Shown here: positions 11,890 to 26,843 of the stretch, piece after piece
How the letters are laid out: the number at the start of each line of letters is the position of its first letter
Position numbering within the stretch: the stretch's first letter is position 1
NCBI GenBank assembly: GCA_028691315.1
Contig: JAQUZN010000007.1
Span: 5,157-44,627, forward strand
Origin: Candidatus Izemoplasmatales bacterium
Lineage (GTDB): Bacteria; Bacillota_I; Bacilli_A; Izemoplasmatales; Hujiaoplasmataceae
DNA: 39,471 nucleotides
Direction of reading: 5' to 3'
The notes under the pieces: model-generated
What the model saw: the letters and a program-made list of their open reading frames with translations, nothing else
The model's database searches: none
What the model was told of the DNA's origin: nothing
Program-made: the position numbers and the translations under genes

Positions 11890-12356
11890 AAACCATCACC
11901 ATCTTTGGATGCTTTTTGTATTGCCTCAATAATCATTTGATAGCCTGTACAGCGACACAAATTACCAGATAACCCAATTTTAATTTCCTCATCAGATGGT
12001 GTAGGATTTTCATTTAATAACGATTCACTCGCAATAATCATTCCCGGCGTACAAAAACCACACTGTACACCACCAGTTTGTTCAAAGCTATCTTTAATAA
12101 CGCTGTATCTTTTGGTTTCACTAAACCCTTCGATGGTTATGACTTCTAATCCATCTACATTTGCAAGTGGAACACTACAAGAATTGACAATCTTATGATT
12201 TAGAAGAACTGAACAAGCACCACATTCACCTTCACCACATCCTTCTTTAACGCCAGTGAGGTGGTATTCATTGCGAAGAACATCTAGTAGTCTTAATCCA
12301 GGGTTTCCAACGTATGTAACTTTTTTTCCATTCAGAATGAACTTAATCGTTGCCAT
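11883..12356 (-). CDS. Molybdenum hydroxylase 2Fe-2S subunit (XdhC/CoxS type)
   Basis: A 157-aa electron-transfer subunit with two [2Fe-2S] clusters. The plant-ferredoxin-like cluster ligands are Cys40, 45, 48 and 60 (KEGCGEGECGAC...NSC); the helical C-terminal cluster uses Cys99, 102, 134 and 136 (QCGFCTPG and NLCRCTG). All eight cysteines are present. ATG 12356 overlaps the Moco gene by 14 bp. The name XdhC here follows E. coli XdhABC and should not be confused with the XdhC-type maturation factor at 18588-19430. Confidence 0.93.
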   Translation of the reverse strand: MATIKFILNGKKVTYVGNPGLRLLDVLRNEYHLTGVKEGCGEGECGACSVLLNHKIVNSCSVPLANVDGLEVITIEGFSETKRYSVIKDSFEQTGGVQCGFCTPGMIIASESLLNENPTPSDEEIKIGLSGNLCRCTGYQMIIEAIQKASKDGDGLW

Positions 12357-14436
12357 TATTCATCAACTCCATAATCTTTTCTGGCGTCATTGGGATTGAA
12401 AATACTTTTCGTTTAATTGCCATTTCTATCGCTTTTGCGACGGCTGGCGCGCCTCCCACTAGCGTTAATTCACCAACACCTTTTGCGCCATATGGTCCAA
12501 GAGGATATGGATTATCCATAATGATGGTTTCCATTTTAGAAATATCTTTTGAAGTTGGAATGATATAATCAGTGAAGTTTTTTTGCATTATTTTACCTAG
12601 AGAATGTTCCATAACTTCAAGATATCCATAAGCAATGCCTTGGGTAATTCCTCCATCAGCTTGTCCCATAACGATTCTCTCATCAATTGCTTTACCTAAG
12701 TCATATACACTCCAAACACCTTCTATCGTTGTTTGATATGTGATTGGATTAACACTGACTTCAACGATATTTACTCCCCATGAGTATGCGGGGTAAGCGT
12801 CTCCTGTAAAAGTGGATTCATCCCACTTAATATATGATGGTTGAACGTAATTTTCTTCTAAAGTTATTTCTTCTTCATTTATATGATCTTTTAATTTTAA
12901 TGCACATCTTGCGACTAAACCGCCCACAATCATGATAGTTCTTGATGCGACAGTAGGTCCAGAATCTGGCACAAAATCAGTATCAGGTAAGTTATAGATT
13001 ATTTTTTCGATGGGCAACTTTAAGATATCAGACACGATTTTTTTCATTGTCGTTCTAACGCCTTGACCCATATCTACAGCTGCAATTAAAATTTCAATAA
13101 ATCCATCTTTATTTTTTTTAAGTTTGACTTTAGCTTTAATATGAGATGCTTCTCCACTTCCAGTAAATCCACATCCATGTAAAAACCAACTCATCCCAAT
13201 TCCTTTATAGAGATTATTCTTTGAGTATTCGTTTGCTTTATCTTTATAATTGGAAAGAGCCATCGCTTTTTCAATCATCTGAGGCATAATGATTGGGTCT
13301 CGGAAAAGACCACTCGTTGAAGTATGATCGTTTTGTTTTGCAAGATACTTTAATCGAAGTGCTAACGGGTCAATATTTAGTGTTTTGACGATATGTTCAA
13401 TAAACATTTCTATCGCAAACAACATTTGTGGAGCTCCAAATCCTCGAAATGCGCCGTTTGGTACAGTATTCGTAATATACACGTCACCAGTGACATCTAA
13501 GTGCTCTATCGTATAAGCTCCAGTACAAGCAATCAATGCTCTTGACAAAACCACACCACTTAAACCAATATTGGCACCAGCATCAATTCCTACAATCGCT
13601 TTTAATCCTGTGATTTCATTTGATTCATTAACTGAAGCAATCATTTTTATCTTGGAAGGATGTCTTTTCGTTGTCGAAATCATATCTTCTTCACGTTCAT
13701 AAATCATTTTAATCGGTTTATTGACTTTCTTTAACGCGACCGCAAGTTGACACGCAAGTAAAGAAGGAAACTCTTCTTTTCCTCCAAATGCGCCACCAAC
13801 TGTTGCTTGGATAACTCTGATATTTTCGGGTTTTGAGTTCAGAGCTAATATGAGGGCGTTTTTTACATAATATGGACACTGAATTGACCCGATCAGAGTC
13901 ACTTTTTCGCCTTCTGTATATCCAATAAATCCTTGAGGCTCGATATAAGCTTGTTCTTGATAGGATGTCGCATAATCGAATTCTATTAGTTTATTCGCTT
14001 TTGAAAAAGAATTTTCTAATGATCCTTTTGAAAAATGGTAATGGACTTTAGAATCTGTCCATTCAAAGATAGGCTCTTCTTCAACATAATGTACTTTGAT
14101 CGATTTTAAAATTGATTCAACTTTTGCTTTGTCTGGCCCAACTACTAGTAGAATGGGTTCACCCAAATAGGTTACTTTATTTTCAGGGAAAATGACTTGG
14201 TCATCAAAAATAATTTTAACCACATTTTTACCAGGAATATCGTGATAATCAACGATAAAATATCCATCTTCTAAAGTTGGAATATCAATCAATGAAATCG
14301 TTCCTTTGGCAATTATAGAACGAAGGGTTCTAGCGTATTGCATATCTTCAAAAAAATAGTCACTAGCATACAATGCTTTTCCACTACATTTTTCTTCATG
14401 ATCAACTTTTTTAATTGATGTCGAAATGTCTTTCAT
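12343..14436 (-). CDS. Molybdenum hydroxylase Moco subunit (XdhA type), probable purine hydroxylase
   Basis: A 697-aa catalytic subunit binding the molybdopterin cofactor. Key loops: VGGAFGGKEE (residues 213-222), GAFRGFGAPQ with the active-site-type Arg331, DMGQGV, and GPYGAKGVGE whose last Glu656 corresponds to the invariant catalytic Glu of xanthine oxidoreductases. EREEDM (about 247-252) aligns with the region that holds the substrate-binding Glu of xanthine oxidase, followed by RHP. These fit a purine hydroxylase, with hypoxanthine or xanthine as likely substrates, but substrate cannot be fixed by eye. RBS AAAGGAGGAG. Selenium dependence of such clusters is known elsewhere but leaves no direct mark in this protein. 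Confidence 0.88.
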   Translation of the reverse strand: MKDISTSIKKVDHEEKCSGKALYASDYFFEDMQYARTLRSIIAKGTISLIDIPTLEDGYFIVDYHDIPGKNVVKIIFDDQVIFPENKVTYLGEPILLVVGPDKAKVESILKSIKVHYVEEEPIFEWTDSKVHYHFSKGSLENSFSKANKLIEFDYATSYQEQAYIEPQGFIGYTEGEKVTLIGSIQCPYYVKNALILALNSKPENIRVIQATVGGAFGGKEEFPSLLACQLAVALKKVNKPIKMIYEREEDMISTTKRHPSKIKMIASVNESNEITGLKAIVGIDAGANIGLSGVVLSRALIACTGAYTIEHLDVTGDVYITNTVPNGAFRGFGAPQMLFAIEMFIEHIVKTLNIDPLALRLKYLAKQNDHTSTSGLFRDPIIMPQMIEKAMALSNYKDKANEYSKNNLYKGIGMSWFLHGCGFTGSGEASHIKAKVKLKKNKDGFIEILIAAVDMGQGVRTTMKKIVSDILKLPIEKIIYNLPDTDFVPDSGPTVASRTIMIVGGLVARCALKLKDHINEEEITLEENYVQPSYIKWDESTFTGDAYPAYSWGVNIVEVSVNPITYQTTIEGVWSVYDLGKAIDERIVMGQADGGITQGIAYGYLEVMEHSLGKIMQKNFTDYIIPTSKDISKMETIIMDNPYPLGPYGAKGVGELTLVGGAPAVAKAIEMAIKRKVFSIPMTPEKIMELMNNGND

Positions 14437-15527: not shown

Positions 15528-16823
15528 CTAGATTCCTTCTTTCTGAAGTTTCTTCCAACAAGCTTTGGAAACTGACTTTCCAGTATTAATCGCTTTTGAT
15601 AGATCTTTTGATACTTTATAATTTGATACTTCGATATTTCCAGCTATAATCACAGTTTCAGGCTTGAAGCTGTTGAAAAGTCCGTAAAATAGATGCCCAA
15701 AGATATTAGATTTATTTACCTCTGTAATACTCTCATATGGCAAAATTAACATATCTGCGACGTAATGTTTTTTTATTTGACCTAGCGGCATTTTAAGTAA
15801 ATGCGATGTGTAATCATATGTATTAATGATTATTTGCAAAACATCATCTAATGTAAATAAATTAGGACTTTTGGATTGCAAATGCATTGCATAGTATAGA
15901 CTTAAATATTCATTTGCCATGGATGGAGATAATCCATCATTACCAATAATCACATTGATACCTTTTTCTAAGAATTTACATACTGGAGCGAGCCCAACAC
16001 CGTTGTTCATATTTGATGAGACATTCACACATACTGTCACATCATTTTTCTTAATCAAATTCAGTTCTTGTTCGTTAAGAAAGATTCCATGAACAAATAA
16101 GCTTTCTTTTCTTAGCAATCCAAAGTCATTCAGTCTATTTACAATACGTTTATGATACTTGGCGATGGAATCATCTTGATCCATCATACTTTCAGCAACA
16201 TGAATGTGGATTGGTGCTGTTGTCTCTTTAGATACTCTTTGTAAAGTATCATCTGAAAGCGTCATAGATGCATGTAGTCCAAACAATCCACTTGTAAATT
16301 CATTATGATTGTTATTGATAAAATGATTGTTTTCATCAATACATTTTGATGTATCAAATCTATCACTTGTTTCAAAACAAAAGATTCCTCTTAAATGGGC
16401 CGTGTCGACGACTGCCTTTTTTAGTTGTTCTAAAGAACCAGTAATTTCACCAGATGCATGATGATCAATAATCGTTGTTACACCATTTTTTAGAAAATCA
16501 CTAGCAAAGGCAATTCCACTGTAATATACCATTTCTAAATCTAAAGACCTATCTAACTTCCACCACAACTGATCAAGAATTTCTTGAAAATTCCTTGGCG
16601 AAAACGGTAGGCTTAATCCTCTAGCAAAAGCAGAATATAAATGTGTGTGTCCACAAACTAGTCCTGGCAAGACAATTTTACCTGTTCCGTCAATTATTTC
16701 GCAATCAAATTTTGGCATGTTACCCATAAGACCAACTTCGTGAATAACATCCGAAAAAAGAATATATCCATCTTCTATATAGGTCACAAAGTCATAGATT
16801 CTTGCATGCACGATACATTTCAT
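15528..16823 (-). CDS. ssnA: SsnA-like amidohydrolase
   Basis: A 431-aa metal-dependent amidohydrolase of the SsnA/chlorohydrolase group. Metal ligands: His59 and His61 in GHTHLYSAFARGL, the later HIHVAES and NDGLSPSMANE with the catalytic Asp. IDHHASGE is characteristic of SsnA. SsnA is a fixed member of ygeW/ygeY/ygfK purine-degradation clusters and is thought to hydrolyse an imine or amide of a ring intermediate; guanine-deaminase-like activity is an alternative. Its ATG overlaps the hydantoinase stop by one base (TAATG), indicating coupled translation. Confidence 0.85.
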   Translation of the reverse strand: MKCIVHARIYDFVTYIEDGYILFSDVIHEVGLMGNMPKFDCEIIDGTGKIVLPGLVCGHTHLYSAFARGLSLPFSPRNFQEILDQLWWKLDRSLDLEMVYYSGIAFASDFLKNGVTTIIDHHASGEITGSLEQLKKAVVDTAHLRGIFCFETSDRFDTSKCIDENNHFINNNHNEFTSGLFGLHASMTLSDDTLQRVSKETTAPIHIHVAESMMDQDDSIAKYHKRIVNRLNDFGLLRKESLFVHGIFLNEQELNLIKKNDVTVCVNVSSNMNNGVGLAPVCKFLEKGINVIIGNDGLSPSMANEYLSLYYAMHLQSKSPNLFTLDDVLQIIINTYDYTSHLLKMPLGQIKKHYVADMLILPYESITEVNKSNIFGHLFYGLFNSFKPETVIIAGNIEVSNYKVSKDLSKAINTGKSVSKACWKKLQKEGI

Positions 16824-18127
16824 TAGTAATCCTCACTTTTTATAAATTGGCCCTCAATAAGCATATTATTTTGGTCTTCGATAATAATATTTCCTCTTAA
16901 TAAAACAAATTTAATGATTTCATCTGTTGGATACCCTTGATATACAGAGTAATCGCATTTTGAATGAAGTTTTTCAATTGCACTATTCGCTAATTCATAT
17001 ATAACTAAATCAGCATCATATCCTTCTTCAATTTTTCCTTTTTTACCTAAGAGATGATGAATAGATGCGGGATTCAATGTCATTTTATCTATTGCTTGTA
17101 CATTAAATAAGTGATACATCAAATGAAAACTGCTTTCAATTCCGCCAATGCCAAGCGGAATATCTTTTAACAACAAATGATTTTTCTCTTTCTTCATAAA
17201 TGAGCAATGATCGGTTCCAATTGTATATACATCCGAAAATAGTGAAACCAACTTAACTAATTCTTCTTTTCTACGAATTGGTGGAGCCATTGTATAAAGA
17301 TATCCATTTTCTTGTTTTAATAGGTCATTAGACAGATTAAAATATTGTGGACAACTTTCTACAAAGAATTTTTTGTTTAAAATATCGGAATACTGTTCTT
17401 TTAGTTTTTGGAGTGTTTCTCCAGAACTAAGGTGAACCATATATAAATACCCACCATATTTTTTGACAAAAGAAGCCAGCTTTAGCGCTTCTTTTGTTTC
17501 GCTAATACTTGGCCTCGAAATCGGAAGATCTTGATACGTAAAATCTGGATTCAAATCAATTAAATCATCATTTTCAATGTGAGCTAAAATTAAAATATGA
17601 TGAATTTGGGATAATTTAAGTAATTCAATAATATCTGCATCATAAGTCCTTCGGTTAGAATTTGAATACGTTGTAAATAGTTTTATTGAAGTTAACCCTA
17701 GTTCCTTCACTTTAAGAACATATTCTTCTAAAGAACCAGTAGGGTTTTTAATTGTCGCATGGAATTTATAATCACAGTGACAATCTTTTGCTTCATTAAG
17801 TCGAGAATAAAAACTTTTTTCGAGGTCACTAGCACAGGATGTTGGTTCTAAAAAATCAATAATTGTTGTAACCCCACCATAAAGGCCAGATATACTACCC
17901 GAGGCAAAATCATCGACAGAATGAATTGTTTTCAAATCTAAAGCCATATGAGTATGTGGATCAATGAGGCCAGGAATAATCATTTTATGATTAGCGTCAA
18001 TGACTTGTTTAGATGCGTAAATTTCATCTGAAATTTTCGCAATCTTTTCGTCTTGAAGATAGATATTCGTTTTAATAAAAGCATGATTGATATAAACTTT
18101 GCCATTGATAATACTTTTATCAAACAT
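16823..18127 (-). CDS. hydA: Hydantoinase/dihydropyrimidinase-like ring-opening amidohydrolase
   Basis: A 434-aa cyclic amidohydrolase. The start is taken as ATG 18127 (MFDKSIINGK) because AAGGAG lies about 9 bp upstream; an in-frame ATG at 18145 overlaps that RBS. Metal-binding residues: HTH at 58-60, Lys149 (carboxylated bridging lysine, in IKLFTTYS), His183 in LAHIEND, a later VHLSSGET His, and TDHCSF with the catalytic Asp. Family members open hydantoin or dihydropyrimidine rings. In this operon it corresponds to HyuA/YgeZ, inferred to open a ring derived from urate or xanthine. Confidence 0.85.
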   Translation of the reverse strand: MFDKSIINGKVYINHAFIKTNIYLQDEKIAKISDEIYASKQVIDANHKMIIPGLIDPHTHMALDLKTIHSVDDFASGSISGLYGGVTTIIDFLEPTSCASDLEKSFYSRLNEAKDCHCDYKFHATIKNPTGSLEEYVLKVKELGLTSIKLFTTYSNSNRRTYDADIIELLKLSQIHHILILAHIENDDLIDLNPDFTYQDLPISRPSISETKEALKLASFVKKYGGYLYMVHLSSGETLQKLKEQYSDILNKKFFVESCPQYFNLSNDLLKQENGYLYTMAPPIRRKEELVKLVSLFSDVYTIGTDHCSFMKKEKNHLLLKDIPLGIGGIESSFHLMYHLFNVQAIDKMTLNPASIHHLLGKKGKIEEGYDADLVIYELANSAIEKLHSKCDYSVYQGYPTDEIIKFVLLRGNIIIEDQNNMLIEGQFIKSEDY

Positions 18128-18145
18128 TTTACACATCTCCTTCAC

Positions 18146-18616
18146 TTACTCGCAAATAATTAGTACATCTTTCAAATTATATTTATGAATGATTTGCTCT
18201 ACTAAATCAGTTCGAATGGAAATCACTAGTTCAAGATTACTCTCCACCATTTTTTTTAGGATATTCGAAAAACCCAAATCATCAAGCTCTAATAATCCAA
18301 TTTCATCTAAGTAAATTGGTTCTACTTTGTTTTCAATCATTTTGATAATCGAAGATTCAATCCATTTCATACCTTCTTCAAGAAATAAATAAGGTCCAAT
18401 TTGACATTGAATTACTTCCTTATCAAAATCTTCTTCTTTGATCACAAGTAAAGCGTCTTTGTTTGTCGAAAGTTGAAAAGCATCATACCTTTTTACTTGG
18501 CTTCCTTCCATCGTTTTTAAACTTAAAAAACCATCTCCTTTTAAATTCGTTAGATAGTGTTTTAACATAAACGATGTCTTGCCAGAATTAATCTTCCCAG
18601 TAACGATACTTACCAT
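18146..18616 (-). CDS. Small THEP1-like P-loop NTPase
   Basis: A 156-aa P-loop protein: Walker A GKINSGKTS (residues 7-15), Walker B YLDEIGLLEL (102-111, acidic pair Asp104-Glu105). The DEIGxLEL form is the signature of the THEP1/NTPase_1 family of nucleoside triphosphatases. Its start lies inside the end of the XdhC-type gene (29-bp overlap; GAGAGA upstream), implying co-production. Substrate is unknown. Given its partner, a chaperone or GTPase-type role in Moco or selenium maturation of the hydroxylases is inference; YqeC, the accessory P-loop protein of selenium-dependent hydroxylases, is longer and has a different Walker A context. Confidence 0.65.
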   Translation of the reverse strand: MVSIVTGKINSGKTSFMLKHYLTNLKGDGFLSLKTMEGSQVKRYDAFQLSTNKDALLVIKEEDFDKEVIQCQIGPYLFLEEGMKWIESSIIKMIENKVEPIYLDEIGLLELDDLGFSNILKKMVESNLELVISIRTDLVEQIIHKYNLKDVLIICE

Positions 18617-19430
18617 GGTTAGTCTCTCTCATATGTGAATGATTTTGTTTGTGATTCGAAATTGCTAGAATTTCAGAAGTAATCGAAATAGCGATATCTT
18701 CGGGTTTGTTTCCACCTAAATCAAGACCAATTGGTGCATAAAAATGTTTTAAATTTACATTTTTCCCAAAAGTCTCATATGTTTTATCCAAATAGTCGTT
18801 TAGCTTAACTGGTGAACAAAGCATCCCTAAATATTTTGGCTTTAGTCCAAGTTCAAGCACTTTGTTGATGACATGATAATCATATTCGTGGGAAGGAGTA
18901 CATACCACAACAAAACTATCTTCTTTAATTCCAACATTTTCAATAAAATCAACAAATCCTTGATTATATAACATATCAGCATTTTGAAAAGCATCAATGA
19001 TTTGTTTTCGTTCATCAATTACTTTCACATGAAAATTCATTGTCTTCAAAATATTCGCTAGCGCTTGACCAACATGCCCAGCTCCAAAAATATATACATC
19101 TTCTTTTGATCCTAAATATTCATAAAACAAAGTGACTACTCCTCCACATACCATCGGTAATGTAAGTGCATTTGGAATAATCTCTGATTCAGTTAGGGCA
19201 TATCTTTCTAATAATGGCTTTCTTGACCTAAATAATGATGCACATTTATTGATGGCATAATATTCTAACTTTCCACCACCAACAGTACCAAAGTACTCTT
19301 TAGTATCTGTTACGATCATCTTTTTACCAACTTCTACTGGTCCTGCGCCTTCTTTTTCAACTGCGGTCACTAAAATCATTGGTATTCCTTTTTTTTGATA
19401 TTCTAGGATTTTCTCATAGATTATGTCCAT
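18588..19430 (-). CDS. XdhC/CoxI-type molybdenum hydroxylase maturation factor
   Basis: A 280-aa protein with the two XdhC domains: an N-terminal segment with GTVGGGKLE (residues 48-56), and a C-terminal Rossmann fold with FGAGHVGQA (114-122), followed by CTPSHEYD, KYLGMLCS and IGLDLGGNKPEDIAISI. XdhC proteins bind the molybdenum cofactor, promote its sulfuration and insert it into xanthine dehydrogenase; they are not part of the enzyme. It would serve both hydroxylases of the operon. RBS AGGTGAAAAT. YqeB-like selenium accessory proteins are the closest alternative. Confidence 0.85.
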   Translation of the reverse strand: MDIIYEKILEYQKKGIPMILVTAVEKEGAGPVEVGKKMIVTDTKEYFGTVGGGKLEYYAINKCASLFRSRKPLLERYALTESEIIPNALTLPMVCGGVVTLFYEYLGSKEDVYIFGAGHVGQALANILKTMNFHVKVIDERKQIIDAFQNADMLYNQGFVDFIENVGIKEDSFVVVCTPSHEYDYHVINKVLELGLKPKYLGMLCSPVKLNDYLDKTYETFGKNVNLKHFYAPIGLDLGGNKPEDIAISITSEILAISNHKQNHSHMRETNHGKYRYWED

Positions 19431-19456: not shown

Positions 19457-20086
19457 CTATAAAACAATCGTTAATACAATAGCTAAAGCAAGCAAAGGTA
19501 ATGCAAGAATTGGTTGCTTTTTAAATTGAAATTTAATTTGTTTATCCCATAAAAGGTTTAGATAAAATAAAGCAGTTGCAATAAACCCGCTAATAACTCC
19601 ATAGTATAGAGCAAAATTTGCCATTGAACCAAAAGATGTTATCTGAGGTGCACTAAATCCAGTTAATAGTGATTGAATAGCTAGCGTGCCTAGAAAGACA
19701 CCTCTCCATCCAATACTTGCGATTGGAAGGGCAACAACTTTTGCAACATGGTTGTTCTTATCAAGTAATGATATAACAGCAAGTACAAATAGTGATTCTA
19801 CTACGATAGAAATCATTGGATTAATTGTTTTCCAAATCGATATCGATGGCATAAAGAAATTAACCGACTTGATAACTGCCGCAATAAACCCAACACCTAG
19901 TAAAGCTACTTTTGAGTTTAGTGCTTTGTAACTACGATACAAGATTACTGATGCTATCGGAAACATAATCGTTCCTGAGATTAAAGCGGGAACAAAATGA
20001 AGGACATATCCTAAAGAAGCTTCTAAGATGCCCCAAATGACTCCAAAGTACAGTATAGTTGTTAATTTTACAAGTTTATTTTTCAT
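19457..20086 (-). CDS. Polytopic membrane protein of unknown function in the hydroxylase operon
   Basis: A 209-aa very hydrophobic protein with about six predicted membrane segments (roughly residues 8-30, 33-52, 60-78, 90-107, 116-138, 150-172, and a C-terminal 190-209 segment), short loops and a few lysines. No enzymatic motif is seen. Size and small-residue-rich helices recall ECF-transporter S components, but no EcfT or ATPase lies nearby, so this is only a resemblance. Its ATG overlaps the end of the Moco subunit gene by 11 bp and it precedes the maturation factor. Uptake of a purine, molybdate or a selenium compound is possible but not shown. Confidence 0.6.
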   Translation of the reverse strand: MKNKLVKLTTILYFGVIWGILEASLGYVLHFVPALISGTIMFPIASVILYRSYKALNSKVALLGVGFIAAVIKSVNFFMPSISIWKTINPMISIVVESLFVLAVISLLDKNNHVAKVVALPIASIGWRGVFLGTLAIQSLLTGFSAPQITSFGSMANFALYYGVISGFIATALFYLNLLWDKQIKFQFKKQPILALPLLALAIVLTIVL

Positions 20087-22403
20087 TTTTAATTTTCTCC
20101 TTTATATTAAGTGCATTTCTAATCTTCTCTGGTGTCATAGGTAACTGGGTGAGGCGAACTCCGAGTGCATTTTCAATCGCATTAGCTAGTGCTGCAGGTG
20201 GAGTATCAATACCAATTTCTCCAACTGATTTTGCGCCAAAAGGGCCACTTTCTTCATAACTTTTCGCAAATTCAGTTGTCAAATTTTTAATTTCCAAACG
20301 AGTAGGAACTTTATAGTTTAATAAATCAGAAGTGATATTTTTTCCCTTGGAAGTGATAACGACATTTTCGTATAATGCCATTCCAAGTCCTTGGACAATT
20401 CCGCCTTCTACTTGACCTTTAGCCAGTTTAGGATTAATGGTTGTTCCGCAATCAACGACAGAAACATAATTCACAATCTCAATTTCACAAGTTTCTTTAT
20501 CAATCAAGATTTCAATAAATCCCGCCATAAATGGTGGTGGTGATTTATGGCCAACATAACTTGAAGTTGCGACTAATTGTTGTTGATCTTCGTTATATGT
20601 CAAACGATTACTTAAATCCACAAGGGTAATGCTTGATTTGTTTGATTTATTTGTGAAAATAATTCCATCATAAATTATGTCAATATCTTCGCAATTAAGG
20701 ACTTTACTTGCTTCTTCAAAAAGCATTGATTTCATTTTTTTCGCTGCTCTTAAAACCGCGTTTCCAGAAACATATGTTGTGGAAGATGCATAAGCACCCG
20801 TGTCAAAAGGTGTCAAATCAGTATCTGATGAATAAACAATGATTTTATCTAGAGAAGTTTGTAACTCTTCTGCAGCAATTTGTGCTAAAACAGTATCAGA
20901 ACCTTGCCCAATATCGGTTGCGCCAATCATTAAATTATAAAATCCACCATCATTTAATTTGATTGTAGCACTTCCCATATCAATGTATGGAATACCACTT
21001 CCTTGCATAGCGATTGCCATACCAACGCTACGGATTTTTTGTTCGTTTTCAACTTTGCACGGATAAATATTATCCCATCCAATTAGTTCTTTTCCCCTTT
21101 TCACACAAAACTCAAGTTTACAAGAGTCCATATTCATTGCGGTACCTTCTGTACCTTCACCCATAATCGCAAAAATTGGGGATGTTTCATTTTCCTTTAT
21201 CATATTCTTTTGACGGAATAATATCGGATCGATTTCAAGTTTATGGCATAACATATCGATTGCTGATTCAAGGGCATAATTTCCTTGAATAGCTCCATAA
21301 CCTCGATATGCTCCAGCGGATGTATGATTGGTATATACGACATGCCCATGAAAACGGACAGAATCTACTTTATTATACAAAGGCAATACTTTAGATCCTG
21401 CGACCATAAAAACAGTTAACGCATGTTCTCCATAGGCTCCAGTATCTGATAATACATAACAATCAATTGCCTTTAGAATTCCATCTTTCGTTGAACCAAG
21501 AGTAATATCCAAACGCATCGGATGTCTTGTATAACTTGATTCAAACACTTCTTTTCTCGAGTAAATCATTTTTGATGGTTTTCCAGTAGTGTAGGTTATA
21601 TAGCTAACAAACATTTCACCATGTAAAGCTTGTTTACCACCAAATCCACCACCAACGCGTGGCTTAATAACTCTGATTTTACTTAAAGGAATTGATAAAG
21701 TTTGGCTTAATATTCTTCGAACATGGAAAGGAGTTTGAGTCGAAGAATATAACACAAGACGATTTTGATAATCGATTCTTGCATTCACTGTATGAGGTTC
21801 TAACATTACATGTGCTTGTGCTTGGGTATAAAATGACTGTTTAATCACTACTTCAGAATTCTTAATGGTTTCTTCTACATCACCCACGTGCATTGCATAA
21901 CTTGCAGCGATGTTTCTAAGTGGCTCAAACCCAATAGGAAACATATCATGAATTTCTGGTTCAGGATGTATAACACTTAAATTATCCATGGCTTTTTCAA
22001 AATCTAAGACTGGTTCTAATAATTCATATTCAACATCTATCATGGATAGGGCTTCATCACATATAGCATCAGTAGATGCTGCAACAACGCATACTTCATC
22101 CCCAATATATCTCACAAACTCGTCTAAGATAAACTTATCATGCGGTGAAGGTTCTGGATATCCTTGTCCCGCTCTTGTGAAAGGAATTCTTGGAAAATCT
22201 TGGTAAGTTAATACACATTCAACACCTTCCAGTTTCTTTGCTTTTGAAGTATCAATTTTCGATATTTTCGCATAAGGATGAGGGCTTCTTAATACTTTAA
22301 CAATCAAAGACTGGTCCATAGCATAATCATCAGAATATGCTGTTCTGCCCATCATAATTCCCTTACCATCAACAGATGGATTTATATTATTAACTACCTT
22401 CAC
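20076..22403 (-). CDS. Molybdenum hydroxylase Moco subunit, second enzyme (XdhD-like)
   Basis: A 775-aa Moco-binding subunit. Loops: VGGGFGGKQ (residues 250-258), AGAYRGYGAIQ with the conserved Arg, ATDIGQGSD, and GPFGAKSVGE with the catalytic Glu729. It is longer than the first Moco subunit, and the two differ in most loops, so they are not recent duplicates. With its small 2Fe-2S partner (150 aa) it adds up to about the size of E. coli XdhD (956 aa), in which the two are fused; the order mocA-FAD-FeS-Moco also recalls E. coli ygfJ...ygfM-xdhD. Start is GTG at 22403, overlapping the previous stop (GTGA), RBS GGGTGATT. Substrate is not known; a purine or urate-derived ring is inferred. Confidence 0.87.
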   Translation of the reverse strand: MKVVNNINPSVDGKGIMMGRTAYSDDYAMDQSLIVKVLRSPHPYAKISKIDTSKAKKLEGVECVLTYQDFPRIPFTRAGQGYPEPSPHDKFILDEFVRYIGDEVCVVAASTDAICDEALSMIDVEYELLEPVLDFEKAMDNLSVIHPEPEIHDMFPIGFEPLRNIAASYAMHVGDVEETIKNSEVVIKQSFYTQAQAHVMLEPHTVNARIDYQNRLVLYSSTQTPFHVRRILSQTLSIPLSKIRVIKPRVGGGFGGKQALHGEMFVSYITYTTGKPSKMIYSRKEVFESSYTRHPMRLDITLGSTKDGILKAIDCYVLSDTGAYGEHALTVFMVAGSKVLPLYNKVDSVRFHGHVVYTNHTSAGAYRGYGAIQGNYALESAIDMLCHKLEIDPILFRQKNMIKENETSPIFAIMGEGTEGTAMNMDSCKLEFCVKRGKELIGWDNIYPCKVENEQKIRSVGMAIAMQGSGIPYIDMGSATIKLNDGGFYNLMIGATDIGQGSDTVLAQIAAEELQTSLDKIIVYSSDTDLTPFDTGAYASSTTYVSGNAVLRAAKKMKSMLFEEASKVLNCEDIDIIYDGIIFTNKSNKSSITLVDLSNRLTYNEDQQQLVATSSYVGHKSPPPFMAGFIEILIDKETCEIEIVNYVSVVDCGTTINPKLAKGQVEGGIVQGLGMALYENVVITSKGKNITSDLLNYKVPTRLEIKNLTTEFAKSYEESGPFGAKSVGEIGIDTPPAALANAIENALGVRLTQLPMTPEKIRNALNIKEKIKNEK

Positions 22404-22852
22404 TTTGAATCACCCATATACTTTTTAATGGCCTCATGTTGGGAAATATATCCTGTGCATCTGCAAAGATTCCCGACCAAATATTTTTTAATTTCCTCAT
22501 CAGTAGGATGTATCAGTTCTTTTTTCATTGCATATAAAGTAAGCGCCATTGATGGATTGCAAAACCCACATTGGTCAGCTCCTTCTTCGCCAAAATAATC
22601 ACTGATTATATCTGCTTCTTTTTGAATACCTTCAACAGTCGTAATTTCATGTCCATCTGTCCGAACTGCTAACAACGAACACGAAGGAACTGGCTTTCCA
22701 TCAAATAAAACAGTGCAAACACCACAACTAGTATTATCACACCCTTTTCTAACAGAGATGTAATGATTTTTCCTTAATGTGTCAAGTAGATATTCGCCAA
22801 TTTCAACATCAAAAACTTTATTTTCATTGTTCACTTTCACATTTATTCTCAA
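22400..22852 (-). CDS. Molybdenum hydroxylase 2Fe-2S subunit, second enzyme
   Basis: A 150-aa subunit with both cluster motifs complete: Cys38, 43, 46 and 58 in the ferredoxin-like half, Cys95, 98, 130 and 132 in the helical half. The second cluster motif reads CGFCNPS rather than the common CGFCTPG. The start is TTG at 22852, overlapping the FAD-subunit stop (TTGA), with AGGAGGTG upstream; no ATG gives a full N-terminus. Confidence 0.9.
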   Translation of the reverse strand: MRINVKVNNENKVFDVEIGEYLLDTLRKNHYISVRKGCDNTSCGVCTVLFDGKPVPSCSLLAVRTDGHEITTVEGIQKEADIISDYFGEEGADQCGFCNPSMALTLYAMKKELIHPTDEEIKKYLVGNLCRCTGYISQHEAIKKYMGDSK

Positions 22853-23646
22853 AAATTTTGCACCTCCTTTATTCCACGCTTCGTATAAACATAAGCTAAG
22901 TGTTTTCGATACTCTTTTGTAGCTCGAACATTACTTGAAAAGCTACATTCGTTAGAACAAGCCACTGCGACTTCTTCTATTAGTTCTGGAGTTACTGTTT
23001 TACTGTTATTTAATAAACTCATTGCATCTGTCGCAAATACTGCATTTCCTGGACGACTACCTATGACAATAGAATATTTTCCATCTTGTTTGGAAATAGC
23101 TACGTTTAATATAGCAAAATCAAGAGCAGTAATTTTAACTTTTTTAAAGTAACAAGAATGACTTGATTTTGGAATTTTGATATTAACTAATATGTCGCGT
23201 TTAATATCCGATGAAGACAAATAATCATTTAATAAAATCTCTCCATATTTATAAAAAACTAATGTTGGATTAAGTAACATTAACACGGGTAATATATCTG
23301 AAAACCCAAACTTTGAAACAATACTACCACCAATCGTCGCAATATTTCTTAACGCAATTCCCATAATTTGTTCTATTGTTTGCTTAATAATCCCTCCACT
23401 TACCGATAAAATCAGTGCGGAGGATTCCATTTGATGAAGCGTGACCATACTTCCAATAACAATATGATTATCCACTTCTTTTATCTCATCTAAGTGTAAA
23501 TCATCAAGAGATATTAAAGTGTCCAGTTTTTTTACTGAAAGTTTCATCCAAGCTCCGCCCGCAATAATTTGAGATTGTAGGTTTGATTGAAGTGTAGCGT
23601 ACGCTTCTTCTAAAGTAGTTGCTTTTAAGTAATGATTAATTTTCAT
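22849..23646 (-). CDS. Molybdenum hydroxylase FAD subunit, second enzyme (YgfM-like)
   Basis: A 265-aa FAD-binding subunit, close in size to E. coli YgfM (259 aa). Flavin loops are diverged: IIAGGAWMKL replaces the common LAGGTDL, and LRNIATIGGSI is followed by SKFGFSD instead of ASPxSD, though the Asp and Gly framework is kept. It may therefore bind FAD differently or more weakly. It is the first structural gene of the operon, 4 bp after mocA. Confidence 0.82.
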   Translation of the reverse strand: MKINHYLKATTLEEAYATLQSNLQSQIIAGGAWMKLSVKKLDTLISLDDLHLDEIKEVDNHIVIGSMVTLHQMESSALILSVSGGIIKQTIEQIMGIALRNIATIGGSIVSKFGFSDILPVLMLLNPTLVFYKYGEILLNDYLSSSDIKRDILVNIKIPKSSHSCYFKKVKITALDFAILNVAISKQDGKYSIVIGSRPGNAVFATDAMSLLNNSKTVTPELIEEVAVACSNECSFSSNVRATKEYRKHLAYVYTKRGIKEVQNF

Positions 23647-23650
23647 CTGA

Positions 23651-24214
23651 TCATTCCTTCCTTTTTTGTTTTAAAACTTCATAATCCTGTATTGTATCTA
23701 TATCTTGTAATATGCCTTCATCATCGGTGTCGATTACTTCAAGAAAATGTCGGTCACGAAATGCCTTTAAATTGGACTCGATTGGTTCTTTCATCAGTGC
23801 TTCTTTAAGTGACAAAGAAAGCAATAATGGATGTCCTTTGATTCCCTTATAAGATGGGACTAACATTGTATGTAACTGACTAATCATCAGTTTATATGTC
23901 TTATGTTGAATCAAAGGATAATCTCCTGGAACAATAAAAAAATCTTCAGATATATGTTTAACACCGCACAGTACTGAGCTAAACATTCCTAACATGTACT
24001 CCTCGTTTTTTACGATTTCAATTTTTGAAATCCCAACCAGTAGTTGAGTTATTTCATCATGATAATGTCCAGTAACGACAACAACCTTTGATACATATGG
24101 CAAAACACTATTAATAGTATTCAATATTAATGGTTCACCGTGAAAAGGTAAGCTCATTTTATTCATTCCAGTCCGTATTGACAGACCACCTGCAAGAACA
24201 ATCGCTTGTGTCAT
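23651..24214 (-). CDS. MocA/YgfJ-like molybdopterin nucleotidyltransferase
   Basis: A 187-aa MobA-like nucleotidyltransferase. The N-terminus IVLAGGLSIRTGMNK (residues 5-19) is the nucleotide-binding signature, and VPGDYPLI (about 95-102) holds the metal-binding Asp. MocA forms molybdopterin cytosine dinucleotide; E. coli YgfJ is a paralogue in the purine cluster. CTP versus GTP choice is not readable with certainty, but hydroxylases usually take the cytosine form. First gene of the operon, strong RBS AGGAGG 3 bp before ATG 24214. The cofactor it makes is expected to serve both hydroxylases. Confidence 0.85.
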   Translation of the reverse strand: MTQAIVLAGGLSIRTGMNKMSLPFHGEPLILNTINSVLPYVSKVVVVTGHYHDEITQLLVGISKIEIVKNEEYMLGMFSSVLCGVKHISEDFFIVPGDYPLIQHKTYKLMISQLHTMLVPSYKGIKGHPLLLSLSLKEALMKEPIESNLKAFRDRHFLEVIDTDDEGILQDIDTIQDYEVLKQKRKE

Positions 24215-24356: not shown

Positions 24357-24386
24357 AGAAAAAGGGGAAAATAGCACTTTTCCCCT
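24357..24386 (-). terminator. Terminator of the 5'-nucleotidase/PfkB unit
   Basis: Nine-bp stem AGGGGAAAA/TTTTCCCCT (24363-24371 and 24378-24386) with a 6-nt loop, followed on the minus strand by a T-rich tail. It overlaps the nucleotidase stop codon and isolates the purine operon from upstream transcription. Confidence 0.85.
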
Positions 24387-25944
24387 AAAATTCGACTTTA
24401 ATATTTTGAATATCTTGTATCCTGAGCGTTTTTCTGGTGCGAATAAATTCAACCATCAATTCAGAAATGTCTAATTGGATTTCCTTTACTAATTCTAAAT
24501 GTTGATACATTTCAAACTCGCCACCACCACTTGCTCGGTAATTATTTAAGACAAGAGTAAAAACGTCGTTATCTTTTACGGCAAATCCTCCATATTTTAA
24601 ACTAGTAATTCTTGAAGATACTGGTCTTGTTACATCAATCGTGTAATAGATGCCATCAAACATATCGTAATTATAATGTTCCATTTTTGGATAAGAATAT
24701 TTTGGAGAAAAAGTTACCTCACCATCAACGATGGTAAAATATTCCGCATTTCTTTCAAGCGCGAATCGCAAGTTCAGACCATCGATTTTAAGAACAGTAA
24801 GGGTATTCGGATATACATAAGTTGATAGCACATTTCGAATGGTAATATTTTCATTAAAACCAGTAATGTCATTTCCAAGTGAAGTCGCAGAAATCATCGC
24901 TTTTGACGCTTCTAACTGAACTTCATTTATAAAAGTAACAATTTTATGTTTTTGAAGTCTTGCTAAAAAAAGATTAGTAACTTGCAAATCATTATTTGGT
25001 ACAGTTCCAATCGGTTCATCTAGAAAAATATTACATGGCTCATGAACGTCTTTTATTAACTCATAAATCTTTGAATCAGCAACTACATCTTTAGCGGGAA
25101 GTAAAAACTCATTTGTTTTTGAAATTTTCCAGTCGTTGTCATGAAACATAAAGTGCAAATCAATAACCCCTAATACTCTTCCGTTTGAAGCAGGTTGGAT
25201 TATTGAAGTATCTCGAACTTTTTTGGAAATTGATCGATGTTGATGCCCAGTTAACAAACAATTAATTTGCGGAAACATCTCAAGCATTTTAGATCCAACA
25301 TTTTCACCGGTATCTTGGACATAAGGTAAAAATGTATCTAAATCTTTTTCAAAACCGCCGTGATATACAACTACTATTGCATGAACTTTTACTTTCTTTA
25401 TCTCTTCTAGTATTAGTTCAAGTTTTTTGATTGGACTTATAAACTGTAAGCCTTCAATATTTAGTGGTCGTTCCCAATTTGGAATATAATCGGTGGTTAA
25501 TCCGATTACAGCAATTTGAATACCATTTGAAAATGAATGAATTGCATATTCCTTATCAAATGTCAAAAGTTTTTCAGAATCGACAATATTTGCGCACAAA
25601 GAGGTAGCATTCAACTGATTTGTGAAACTCTCTAGGTAGGATTTCCCGTAATTGAAATCATGATTTCCAGGTATAAAGTAATCATATTTTAAATGATTAA
25701 AAACTGTTGAAACAGGATTTTCATACTTTTCTCTATTTAGCTGATGAAAATACATTAATGGCGAACCTTGAATTGTATCACCACAATCGATTAAAACAGA
25801 GTTTTCTGTTCGATTTTCTTTTATCAGTGTAGAAATCAAAGACATCCCATATCCAGTAGTTTCATTATTTGCGTAATTCACGTTTAAAAGGGATCCATGT
25901 GTGTCGCTAGTTGTTAATATTCGAATATCAGTTTCACTAGTCAT
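24385..25944 (-). CDS. 5'-nucleotidase-like metallophosphatase (UshA/YunD type), cytoplasmic
   Basis: A 519-aa two-domain phosphatase. N-terminal metallophosphatase motifs: SDTHG (Asp14, His16), CGDTIQGS, GNHDFNYG, VVYHGG and LTGHQH. The C-terminal 5'-nucleotidase domain carries the ATSLGNDI region and ASGGGEFEMY, the substrate-binding loop of the family. It hydrolyses nucleoside monophosphates, 2',3'-cyclic nucleotides or related esters. Unlike UshA it has no signal peptide, so it is intracellular, as with B. subtilis YunD. It follows the PfkB kinase gene by 23 bp in the same direction and ends in a strong terminator. Together they suggest nucleoside turnover feeding the neighbouring purine operon. 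Confidence 0.88.
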   Translation of the reverse strand: MTSETDIRILTTSDTHGSLLNVNYANNETTGYGMSLISTLIKENRTENSVLIDCGDTIQGSPLMYFHQLNREKYENPVSTVFNHLKYDYFIPGNHDFNYGKSYLESFTNQLNATSLCANIVDSEKLLTFDKEYAIHSFSNGIQIAVIGLTTDYIPNWERPLNIEGLQFISPIKKLELILEEIKKVKVHAIVVVYHGGFEKDLDTFLPYVQDTGENVGSKMLEMFPQINCLLTGHQHRSISKKVRDTSIIQPASNGRVLGVIDLHFMFHDNDWKISKTNEFLLPAKDVVADSKIYELIKDVHEPCNIFLDEPIGTVPNNDLQVTNLFLARLQKHKIVTFINEVQLEASKAMISATSLGNDITGFNENITIRNVLSTYVYPNTLTVLKIDGLNLRFALERNAEYFTIVDGEVTFSPKYSYPKMEHYNYDMFDGIYYTIDVTRPVSSRITSLKYGGFAVKDNDVFTLVLNNYRASGGGEFEMYQHLELVKEIQLDISELMVEFIRTRKTLRIQDIQNIKVEF

Positions 25945-25967
25945 GATTTCATCTCTTTCCAGTTTTT

Positions 25968-26843
25968 TTATAAAAGTTTATCTAACCAATTTGTATTCAA
26001 TAAAGGACTAACAATTTCTAAATGTTCTACACACTTTTTCGCGACCTGTGCACCCGAATATAAGCATTTTTCATAAGATTTCCCCATTGTATATGCATAT
26101 AAAAAACCAGCAAAAAAGTTATCTCCAGCACCATTCGTGTCAACAACTCTTGTGCCAGGAATACTGTCTTGATATAGCCATTTTTTGTCCTTTGTCAGAA
26201 GTGAAGACCCATGTTTTCCATGAGTACAAACGACAAGTTCTTTTCCTAATGAAATTTGTTCTGACATAAACTCTTTATAATTTGGCAAAAGATCACTACT
26301 TAAGAACAAATAATCAGCTGCCTCAATAAAATCTTGGTAGTAAGAATTTTGGCCATCATAATCATGAATGTCTACCCAAATTTTCTTGTTTAAAGTCTTA
26401 ATAAGTGGAATAAATTTTCGACAGTAATTCATGATGTTTAAAACAATAATATCCGCTTTTTTAATTTGATTTTCAATCAAATATTGATTAACAGTAGGTT
26501 CAAAAGATGTACTATTTGTGAATATAGAAATTCTATTTCCATCTTCGCTCATTAGATTTGTATGTGTTTCAGTCCCTAAAAAATCAATATCACTTATAAA
26601 ACGCACATTATGATTTCTTAAGGTATTTTCAATTATTTTTCCGGAGTTGTCGTCGCCAATTACGCCATGTAAAGTTACCTTAAACCCCAGTTTTTTTAAA
26701 GCAATGGCTTTTCCTGCACCAGTAGATCCTACAACCTGATATATGTTTTTCGCAAAAATAGTTTTAGCGAATCCATCTGGTAATTTATCAAGTTGAATAA
26801 TTGTATCATACGATACTCCACCAAGAACAAATACTTCATCCAT
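25968..26843 (-). CDS. PfkB-family sugar/nucleoside kinase
   Basis: A 291-aa ribokinase-fold kinase. The C-terminal PfkB signature DTNGAGDNFFAGF starts at residue 235, with catalytic base Asp241. The N-terminal GGxSxDxI segment (residues 8-15) is present, but the usual GGSGAN glycine pair is VGSTGAGKA, so the substrate pocket differs from ribokinase. Adenosine, inosine, cytidine or a sugar are possible substrates; pairing with a 5'-nucleotidase favours a nucleoside, without proof. ATG 26843 follows AAGGGGTG. First gene of a two-gene unit. Confidence 0.8.
   Translation of the reverse strand: MDEVFVLGGVSYDTIIQLDKLPDGFAKTIFAKNIYQVVGSTGAGKAIALKKLGFKVTLHGVIGDDNSGKIIENTLRNHNVRFISDIDFLGTETHTNLMSEDGNRISIFTNSTSFEPTVNQYLIENQIKKADIIVLNIMNYCRKFIPLIKTLNKKIWVDIHDYDGQNSYYQDFIEAADYLFLSSDLLPNYKEFMSEQISLGKELVVCTHGKHGSSLLTKDKKWLYQDSIPGTRVVDTNGAGDNFFAGFLYAYTMGKSYEKCLYSGAQVAKKCVEHLEIVSPLLNTNWLDKLL

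What the first reader, a model, noticed from the sequence alone, without database searches (positions are those of the whole stretch)
18146..18616. THEP1-like NTPase overlapped with the XdhC-type maturation factor
A 156-aa P-loop protein with DEIGLLEL is translated from inside the end of the maturation gene. Such NTPases are not a standard part of xdh or yge clusters. The tight coupling suggests a nucleotide-driven step in cofactor sulfuration, selenation or insertion.
Basis: partly seen in the sequence, partly recalled or inferred. Interest (0 to 1): 0.5.

Follow-up and report, generated by a model that had tools for sequence, protein, structure and literature searches.

The report
Helper NTPase of xanthine dehydrogenase operon
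A small protein predicted to split ATP or GTP, from a family with no known job, is a steady partner of a molybdenum-enzyme operon in bacteria that mostly seem unable to make the molybdenum cofactor, so it is a lead on how they obtain or load that cofactor.

Summary
The gene is real: window 18146-18616, MINUS strand, 156 aa, a THEP1-type (PF03266) P-loop NTPase whose start overlaps the XdhC stop by 29 nt. In 296 genomes of the class 31 carry the NTPase, and all 31 have the orthologous XdhA. In 30 of 30 stretches read it directly precedes the hydantoinase-like gene; in 27 of 29 determinable ones it directly follows XdhC. It is a specialised subfamily (K34 in 61 of 61 linked rows, where both solved THEP1-type proteins have Glu). 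Selenation is not supported: SelD is over cut-off in 1 of 31 carriers. Two unforeseen points. (1) The third gene of the module, a 209-aa membrane protein (19457-20086) with no supported Pfam or NCBIfam match, has a predicted fold nearest to ECF vitamin-uptake S-components and is found in 37 of the 39 XdhA-ortholog genomes and none of the other 257. (2) MoaC is missing from 33 and MoeA from 34 of those 39, and one closed chromosome, searched whole, shows no cofactor pathway. Best reading: accessory NTPase for cofactor handling at XdhC. Boldest reading: part of a molybdenum-cofactor salvage system. Activity, transport and substrate are untested.

The parts
18146..18616 (-). THEP1-type P-loop NTPase, 156 aa, the subject of the finding
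18575..18598 (-). Walker A region, residues 7-14 (GKINSGKT); second glycine (G12) kept in 41 of 61 linked homologs
18284..18313 (-). Walker B region, residues 102-111 (YLDEIGLLEL); D104 and E105 in 61 of 61
18588..18616 (-). 29-nt overlap of the XdhC end and the NTPase start
18588..19430 (-). XdhC-type maturation factor (PF02625 and PF13478, both over cut-off)
19457..20086 (-). 209-aa membrane protein; predicted fold nearest to ECF S-components; no supported Pfam or NCBIfam match
20076..22403 (-). XdhA-like molybdopterin-binding subunit of hydroxylase 1 (PF02738, PF20256)
22400..23646 (-). 2Fe-2S-type (22400-22852) and FAD-type (22849-23646) subunits of hydroxylase 1; named by reading the sequence, not by a family search
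23651..24214 (-). MocA-like cytidylyltransferase (PF12804 over cut-off; TIGR03310 136 bits, under its cut-off of 186)
16823..18145 (-). hydantoinase-like amidohydrolase, next gene after the NTPase in 30 of 30 stretches
12343..14436 (-). molybdopterin-binding subunit of hydroxylase 2 (PF02738, PF20256)

Best explanation
The protein is a dedicated accessory NTPase of the anaerobic purine-type Mo-hydroxylase operon, encoded as the last of a three-gene accessory module (membrane protein, XdhC, NTPase). It most likely binds and slowly hydrolyses ATP or GTP to drive one step in handling the molybdenum cofactor: getting the cofactor (Mo-molybdopterin or the cytidine form that MocA makes) onto XdhC, or off XdhC into the apo-hydroxylase. 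This would work like the unrelated AAA+ ATPase CoxD, which acts beside the XdhC-like CoxF in CO dehydrogenase maturation. Shown here: the gene, the predicted fold, the conserved NTP-site residues, the linkage and the joint absence of the module. Inferred: NTPase activity, partnership with XdhC, co-translation, and the exact step.
For: All 31 NTPase genomes are among the 39 XdhA-ortholog genomes of 296; it sits between XdhC and the hydantoinase-like gene (30 of 30 and 27 of 29). In the six readable XdhA clusters without it, membrane protein and XdhC are missing from the cluster too. In Vallitalea L076 it lies among accessory genes only: XdhC, NTPase, YqeC, MocA, YqeB. Walker A lysine and Walker B Asp-Glu are kept in 61 of 61. 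XdhC binds, has sulfurated and inserts the cofactor, and how insertion is controlled is called unidentified (PMC2997495, passages). ATP-driven sulfuration by CoxD has a precedent in print (PMC4240915, abstract and passages).
Against: G160 keeps the NTPase without any XdhC domain found, and several Erysipelotrichaceae-type loci have membrane protein and NTPase with no XdhC in the stretch held (L116, L121-L123, L128). Six readable XdhA clusters do without the NTPase. The second P-loop glycine is replaced in 20 of 61, so NTP turnover may be altered. No biochemical data.
Confidence: 0.5

Rival explanations
1. Cofactor salvage. The membrane protein is an ECF S-component that, with the shared EcfA-EcfA'-EcfT module, imports Moco or a dephosphorylated molybdopterin. 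The NTPase is the intracellular salvage step: a kinase restoring the phosphate that MocA needs, or an NTP-driven loader. MocA and XdhC then deliver the cofactor. Everything beyond gene presence and predicted fold is inferred.
For: MoaC is missing from 33 of 39 XdhA-ortholog genomes and MoeA from 34 of 39. The closed chromosome G119 gives no hit for MoaA, MoaB, MoaC, MoaD, MoaE, MoeA, Mog or ModA at E<=1 but has MocA, an XdhC-type protein and two hydroxylases. Of the 33 genomes without MoaC, 32 have the membrane protein; the other, G277, has a contig ending inside XdhA. Fold nearest to ECF S-components; EcfT and two ABC ATPases are adjacent in G119. Where the pathway exists with enough flank (G126, G229, G249) it lies beside an aldehyde:ferredoxin oxidoreductase rather than the xdh cluster.
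Against: 5 of 6 MoaC-positive genomes also have the membrane protein. Five MoaC-less XdhA genomes have neither NTPase nor an in-cluster copy of the membrane protein, only a weaker match elsewhere. The S-component fold match is not significant in Foldseek, and pMMO chains reach Z 10.9. No kinase activity could be confirmed for Aquifex THEP1 (PMC1079890, abstract). Most genomes here are incomplete assemblies.
Confidence: 0.22
2. The membrane protein is a purine-type (substrate) transporter component, and the NTPase an operon passenger with a regulatory or nucleotide-linked role in purine breakdown, not in cofactor handling.
For: Both genes track the purine operon closely, also in MoaC-positive genomes. 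The NTPase is always followed by the hydantoinase-like gene in the stretches read.
Against: The window already has a xanthine/uracil-type permease (PF00860). In L076 the NTPase stands with accessory genes only. In G242 the membrane protein and XdhC moved away together.
Confidence: 0.15
3. A generic THEP1-type nucleotide-processing protein that happens to be co-transcribed with the cluster.
For: More distant relatives have other neighbours.
Against: Linkage holds over many genera and several phyla among 64 of 80 named loci; K34 is invariant in 61 of 61 linked rows but present in 5 of 15 unlinked ones.
Confidence: 0.1
4. A selenium-cofactor factor standing in for YqeC.
For: The cluster has genes of the ssnA/yge kind known from selenium-dependent hydroxylase loci (PMC2276186, part 1 of 4 read); L076 carries YqeC and YqeB beside the NTPase.
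Against: SelD over cut-off in 1 of 31 carriers. The profile comparison with YqeC gives a probability of 0.8% (YqeC side of only 2 sequences). NTPase and YqeC occur side by side in L076, so one does not replace the other there.
Confidence: 0.03

Closest known systems
THEP1 / NTPCR family (PF03266; Aquifex 1ye8, human 2i3b)
   Same: Pfam score over cut-off; predicted fold (Z 16.1, rmsd 3.1, 146 aligned to 1ye8; Z 12.5, rmsd 3.7, 149 aligned to 2i3b); Walker B DE(I/V)G.(L)E stretch
   Different: 19% identity in the structural alignment; invariant Lys34 where both solved proteins have Glu; second P-loop Gly not kept in 20 of 61; tied to a Mo-hydroxylase operon
CoxD (AAA+ ATPase beside XdhC-like CoxF in CO dehydrogenase maturation; PMC4240915)
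   Same: Proposed role: NTP-driven maturation step of a Mo hydroxylase next to an XdhC-type protein (passages)
   Different: Other P-loop family (no AAA+ MoxR-type match for the window protein); here no copper site is implied
YqeC (TIGR03172 / PF19842), accessory protein of selenium-dependent Mo hydroxylases
   Same: Has a GxGGKT-type P-loop and the same kind of neighbourhood
   Different: No family match; hhalign probability 0.8%; coexists with the NTPase in L076
ECF transporter S-components (RibU, FolT, ThiT, PanT), for the membrane protein only
   Same: Size and predicted helix arrangement; EcfT plus two ATPases present in G119
   Different: No sequence match to a solved chain beyond chance (best E 2.3); ligand unknown; encoded inside an enzyme operon

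Membership tests
THEP1-type NTPase (PF03266) | Pfam profile score over the gathering cut-off | tested here: met
   44.7 against 23.9; 60 of 61 linked homologs match at E<=0.01
THEP1-type NTPase (PF03266) | THEP1 fold | tested here: met
   1ye8 Z 16.1, rmsd 3.1, 146 aligned; Foldseek E 2.2e-6
THEP1-type NTPase (PF03266) | Walker A lysine and Walker B Asp-Glu | tested here: met
   K13, D104, E105 in 61 of 61
THEP1-type NTPase (PF03266) | ATPase/GTPase activity | not testable with these tools
   none
NCBIfam NF010248 (THEP1-type NTPase equivalog) | Score over the curated cut-off | tested here: not met
   39.4 against 156
YqeC (TIGR03172) | Profile match | tested here: not met
   no match; hhalign probability 0.8%
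MobB (PF03205) | Profile match | tested here: not met
   no match of the NTPase at E<=1; MobB itself over cut-off in 0 of 42 genomes searched
ECF S-component (membrane protein 19457-20086) | S-component fold | tested here: inconclusive
   12 of the top 17 VIA rows are ECF S-components or CbiM, best Z 11.7 (rmsd 3.4, 161 aligned), but the other 5 are pMMO chains with Z up to 10.9 and Foldseek gives no E below 0.001
ECF S-component (membrane protein 19457-20086) | EcfA-EcfA'-EcfT module available in the genome | tested here: met
   only in G119: CbiQ 144.7 bits beside two ABC ATPases; other genomes not tested
ECF S-component (membrane protein 19457-20086) | Ligand binding and uptake | not testable with these tools
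   none

The most novel reading that the evidence does not exclude
These bacteria are molybdenum-cofactor auxotrophs: the membrane protein is a dedicated ECF S-component for Moco or molybdopterin, and the THEP1-like NTPase is the intracellular salvage enzyme or loader that hands the imported cofactor to MocA and XdhC. That would give a bacterial THEP1 subfamily a role and explain 'orphan' molybdoenzymes.
Probability: 0.22. Interest if true: 0.88.

Novelty: new variant of a known kind. Interest (0 to 1): 0.6.

Why it matters
The THEP1 structure paper calls the protein's in vivo function unknown (PMC1079890, abstract); here one subfamily is tied to one enzyme system. The same operon exposes a puzzle acknowledged in print: molybdoenzymes in organisms without the cofactor pathway (PMC6147048, sections 5 and 11). 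The candidate module is small, conserved, and present in CP076020.1, a complete chromosome titled 'strain zrk2', so the question could be tested directly if that strain can be grown and manipulated.

Tried and rejected
Selenation / YqeC replacement: disfavoured. MobB-like adaptor: no profile match; no MobB entry is among the 50 rows shown, which excludes nothing. 'The NTPase works only with XdhC': weakened by G160 and by loci lacking XdhC. 'The membrane protein occurs only where cofactor synthesis is lost': rejected, 5 of 6 MoaC-positive genomes have it. A Mo-independent form of the hydroxylases: not favoured, because the motifs around the recalled cofactor-binding and catalytic residues are kept in 36 rows of enzyme 1 (35 from clusters, window included, and 1 from E. 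coli) and 30 rows of enzyme 2; which residues bind the cofactor is recalled, not tested. Known RNA families: none at gathering score in 6 sources. No tRNA in the window.

Papers: 'xanthine dehydrogenase' with 'THEP1' gave 0 papers. 'Molybdenum cofactor' with salvage, importer, auxotroph: 120 papers hold 3 of the 4 terms, 15 listed, none of those listed is about Moco uptake by title or abstract start. Moco uptake and transporter phrases gave 1 paper, a T11SS study by its title. 'ECF transporter', 'molybdenum cofactor', 'S component' gave 1, a co-expression study by its title. XdhC with nucleoside-triphosphatase or molybdenum hydroxylase: 9 papers, none with the term nucleoside-triphosphatase. 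PMC12507026 was searched inside for six terms, 0 occurrences. Only openly licensed papers are in the library and no preprints, so absence from print is not shown.

Limits: MoaE and ModA found nothing in the control contigs either, so their absence from G119 is poorly controlled; the MoaD control was weak (E 0.0025). EcfT was looked for in G119 only. Whether the 14 genomes with more distant hydroxylases (of 53) make Moco was not tested. Fisher tests (NTPase p 6e-35, membrane protein p 4e-45) are not corrected for kinship. The membrane-protein model searched was built partly from the same lineages. Many gene names in neighbourhoods are best phmmer matches to window proteins, not family assignments.

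Full report
WHAT IS THERE. The ORF at 18146-18616 reads on the minus strand as a 156-aa protein starting with ATG; the plus strand is closed. The neighbouring genes on the same strand, in order of transcription, are MocA-like, FAD, FeS and Mo subunits of hydroxylase 1, a 209-aa membrane protein, XdhC, the NTPase, hydantoinase-like, SsnA-like, PreA-like, hydroxylase 2, then genes I read as adenine deaminase, threonine-synthase-like, YgeX, YgeY and YgeW types (the FAD/FeS subunits, adenine deaminase, threonine-synthase, YgeX and YgeY names are my reading, without a family search). XdhC and the NTPase overlap by 29 nt.

WHAT FAMILY. Pfam NTPase_1 scores 44.7 bits, cut-off 23.9. The AlphaFold2 model (mean pLDDT 95.4) matches Aquifex THEP1 (Z 16.1, rmsd 3.1, 146 aligned) and human NTPCR (Z 12.5, rmsd 3.7, 149 aligned) (Foldseek E 2.2e-6 and 9.4e-7). 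In 61 linked rows G7, K13, G29, K34, D104, E105, L109 and E110 are invariant. The second P-loop glycine is kept in 41 of 61. The profile alignment puts K34 on a Glu of the GF-x-T-E-E stretch of both solved proteins. K34 holds in 61 of 61 linked rows and 5 of 15 unlinked ones. For Aquifex THEP1 the in vivo function is unknown and a kinase activity could not be confirmed (PMC1079890; abstract and section 8 read).

LINKAGE. In 296 genomes sampled from the class, 31 have the NTPase and 53 have a match to the window's Mo subunit at E<=1e-20, 39 of them over 1000 bits, which I take as orthologs. All 31 NTPase genomes are among the 39. Around it I fetched 30 stretches, one of them (G187) cut by a contig end. 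The hydantoinase-like gene follows in 30 of 30; XdhC precedes in 27 of 29 determinable ones. The two exceptions are G242, where XdhC and the membrane protein lie together on another contig, and G160, where neither XdhC domain was found in the genome. Of the 8 ortholog genomes without the NTPase, G222 and G277 have a contig end at the place. Six are readable (G249, G061, G079, G102, G226, G281), and in all six membrane protein, XdhC and NTPase are absent between XdhA and the hydantoinase-like gene. By my reading, 64 hold xdh, XdhC or purine-pathway genes near the NTPase (L141 only weakly) and 16 do not; 10 of the 16 are Spirochaetes by record title. I read the neighbours of 11 of the 16 by eye and saw no Mo gene. 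On a quick tree of 76 rows the linked label needs 4 changes (13.8 in shuffles). In Vallitalea L076 the order is XdhC, NTPase, YqeC, MocA, YqeB.

SELENIUM. SelD is over its cut-off in 1 of 31 carriers (G194) and in none of 11 other genomes searched; 11 further weak matches lie below the cut-off. YqeC is not found in the own genome.

THE MEMBRANE PROTEIN. None of its 41 aligned members has a supported match in Pfam (best E 0.05) or NCBIfam (best E 0.0084, one member). The predicted fold (mean pLDDT 94.1) lies nearest to ECF S-components: 5kc0 RibU Z 11.7 (rmsd 3.4, 161 aligned), 7nnt_C of a folate-specific ECF transporter Z 11.0 (rmsd 4.1, 164), 4tkr_A ThiT Z 9.6 (rmsd 3.5, 162), 6zg3_C of ECF-PanT Z 9.6 (rmsd 4.0, 173), 5x3x_m of CbiMQO Z 8.0 (rmsd 3.8, 143). 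Twelve of the top 17 rows are of this kind; the other five are pMMO chains, Z up to 10.9. Foldseek alone is not significant, and the tool warns that helical bundles can reach about 13 by arrangement alone. The family is found in 37 of 296 genomes, all among the 39. In G061, G079, G102, G226 and G281 it is a weaker match (E 5e-23 to 3e-26) away from the cluster; in G084, G126 and G242 a full-strength copy lies on another contig. The two without it are G277 (contig end) and G249.

COFACTOR PATHWAY. MoaC is over cut-off in 6 of 47 genomes searched, which include all 39; all six are among the 39, so 33 of 39 lack it. MoeA_N is in 5 of 47, all among the 39, so 34 of 39 lack it. Of the 31 NTPase carriers 26 lack MoaC and 27 lack MoeA. 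The own genome (90% complete, 7.9% contaminated) lacks both. G119 is one contig with the length and NTPase position of CP076020.1, strain zrk2. Searched whole with E. coli proteins it gives no hit at E<=1 for MoaA, MoaB, MoaC, MoaD, MoaE, MoeA, Mog or ModA; MocA (1e-18), both hydroxylases and the XdhC-type protein are hit, as are generic ABC proteins and a MoeB/ThiF-type ORF. In relatives' contigs the same queries find MoaA, MoaB, MoaC, MoeA and Mog at 1e-19 to 1e-52, but not MoaE or ModA. With relatives' proteins as queries, MoaC, MoeA, Mog and one of two MoaA queries find nothing in G119 at E<=10; the other MoaA query hits an ORF weakly (E 3.6e-5, 20.8 bits) and MoeB hits the ThiF-type ORF. 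Relatives' aldehyde:ferredoxin oxidoreductase, MOSC and TupA-like proteins find nothing in G119 at E<=1e-3. Such an oxidoreductase lies beside the pathway in G126, G229 and G249; the contigs of G084, G132 and G284 that were read hold none, and they are short. 'Orphan' molybdoenzymes without the pathway are counted in 292 bacteria without nitrogenase and 13 with it, left unexplained, and Tenericutes/Mollicutes are said to lack Mo use (PMC6147048, sections 5 and 11 read).

MECHANISM. The safest reading is an NTP-driven step at XdhC. XdhC binds Moco, has it sulfurated and inserts it, and the control of insertion was not identified (PMC2997495, passages). For CO dehydrogenase, sulfuration uses MgATP and the AAA+ protein CoxD, with the XdhC-like CoxF in the same system (PMC4240915, abstract and passages). 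The bolder reading adds import: with no pathway found in G119, the Mo-cofactor genes left are those that act on finished cofactor (MocA, XdhC), plus an S-component-like protein and the NTPase. Against it stand the five MoaC-positive genomes that keep the membrane protein and the five MoaC-less XdhA genomes without the NTPase.

VERDICT. Observation confirmed. Interpretation partly supported: an accessory role is likely, selenation is not supported, the exact step is open. New as a subfamily and a module, not as a fold.

Noticed in passing
L118 1534-2247, L119 7441-8208, L124 7478-8191, L135 6315-7034: In WOR-3 and Neomarinimicrobiota loci one more gene stands between the membrane protein and XdhC; in L118 and L135 it is DUF4213-DUF364 ('putative heavy-metal chelation'), the other two look alike by eye.
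   Followed up: partly
L252 (G126), L253 (G249), L254 (G229): In these relatives with a molybdopterin pathway the genes lie beside an aldehyde:ferredoxin oxidoreductase and a TupA-like binding protein, not beside the xdh cluster.
   Followed up: partly
L131, L138, L139 (Spirochaetes); L110, L112-L114: Unlinked THEP1 relatives keep their own recurring neighbours (by eye: pseudouridine-glycosidase-like and PfkB-like genes in Spirochaetes; a kinase-like and a HAD-like gene in the others), which may hint at other roles.
   Followed up: no
L144 8718-11762 (G249); L154 2504-5533 (G277): Two relatives have a protein of about 1010 aa between SsnA and hydroxylase 2 in place of the PreA-like protein; by eye it resembles E. 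coli YgfK.
   Followed up: no
window 24385-26843: A 5'-nucleotidase-like and a PfkB-type kinase gene lie just upstream of the MocA-like gene; the 5'-nucleotidase is in the same place in some near relatives.
   Followed up: no
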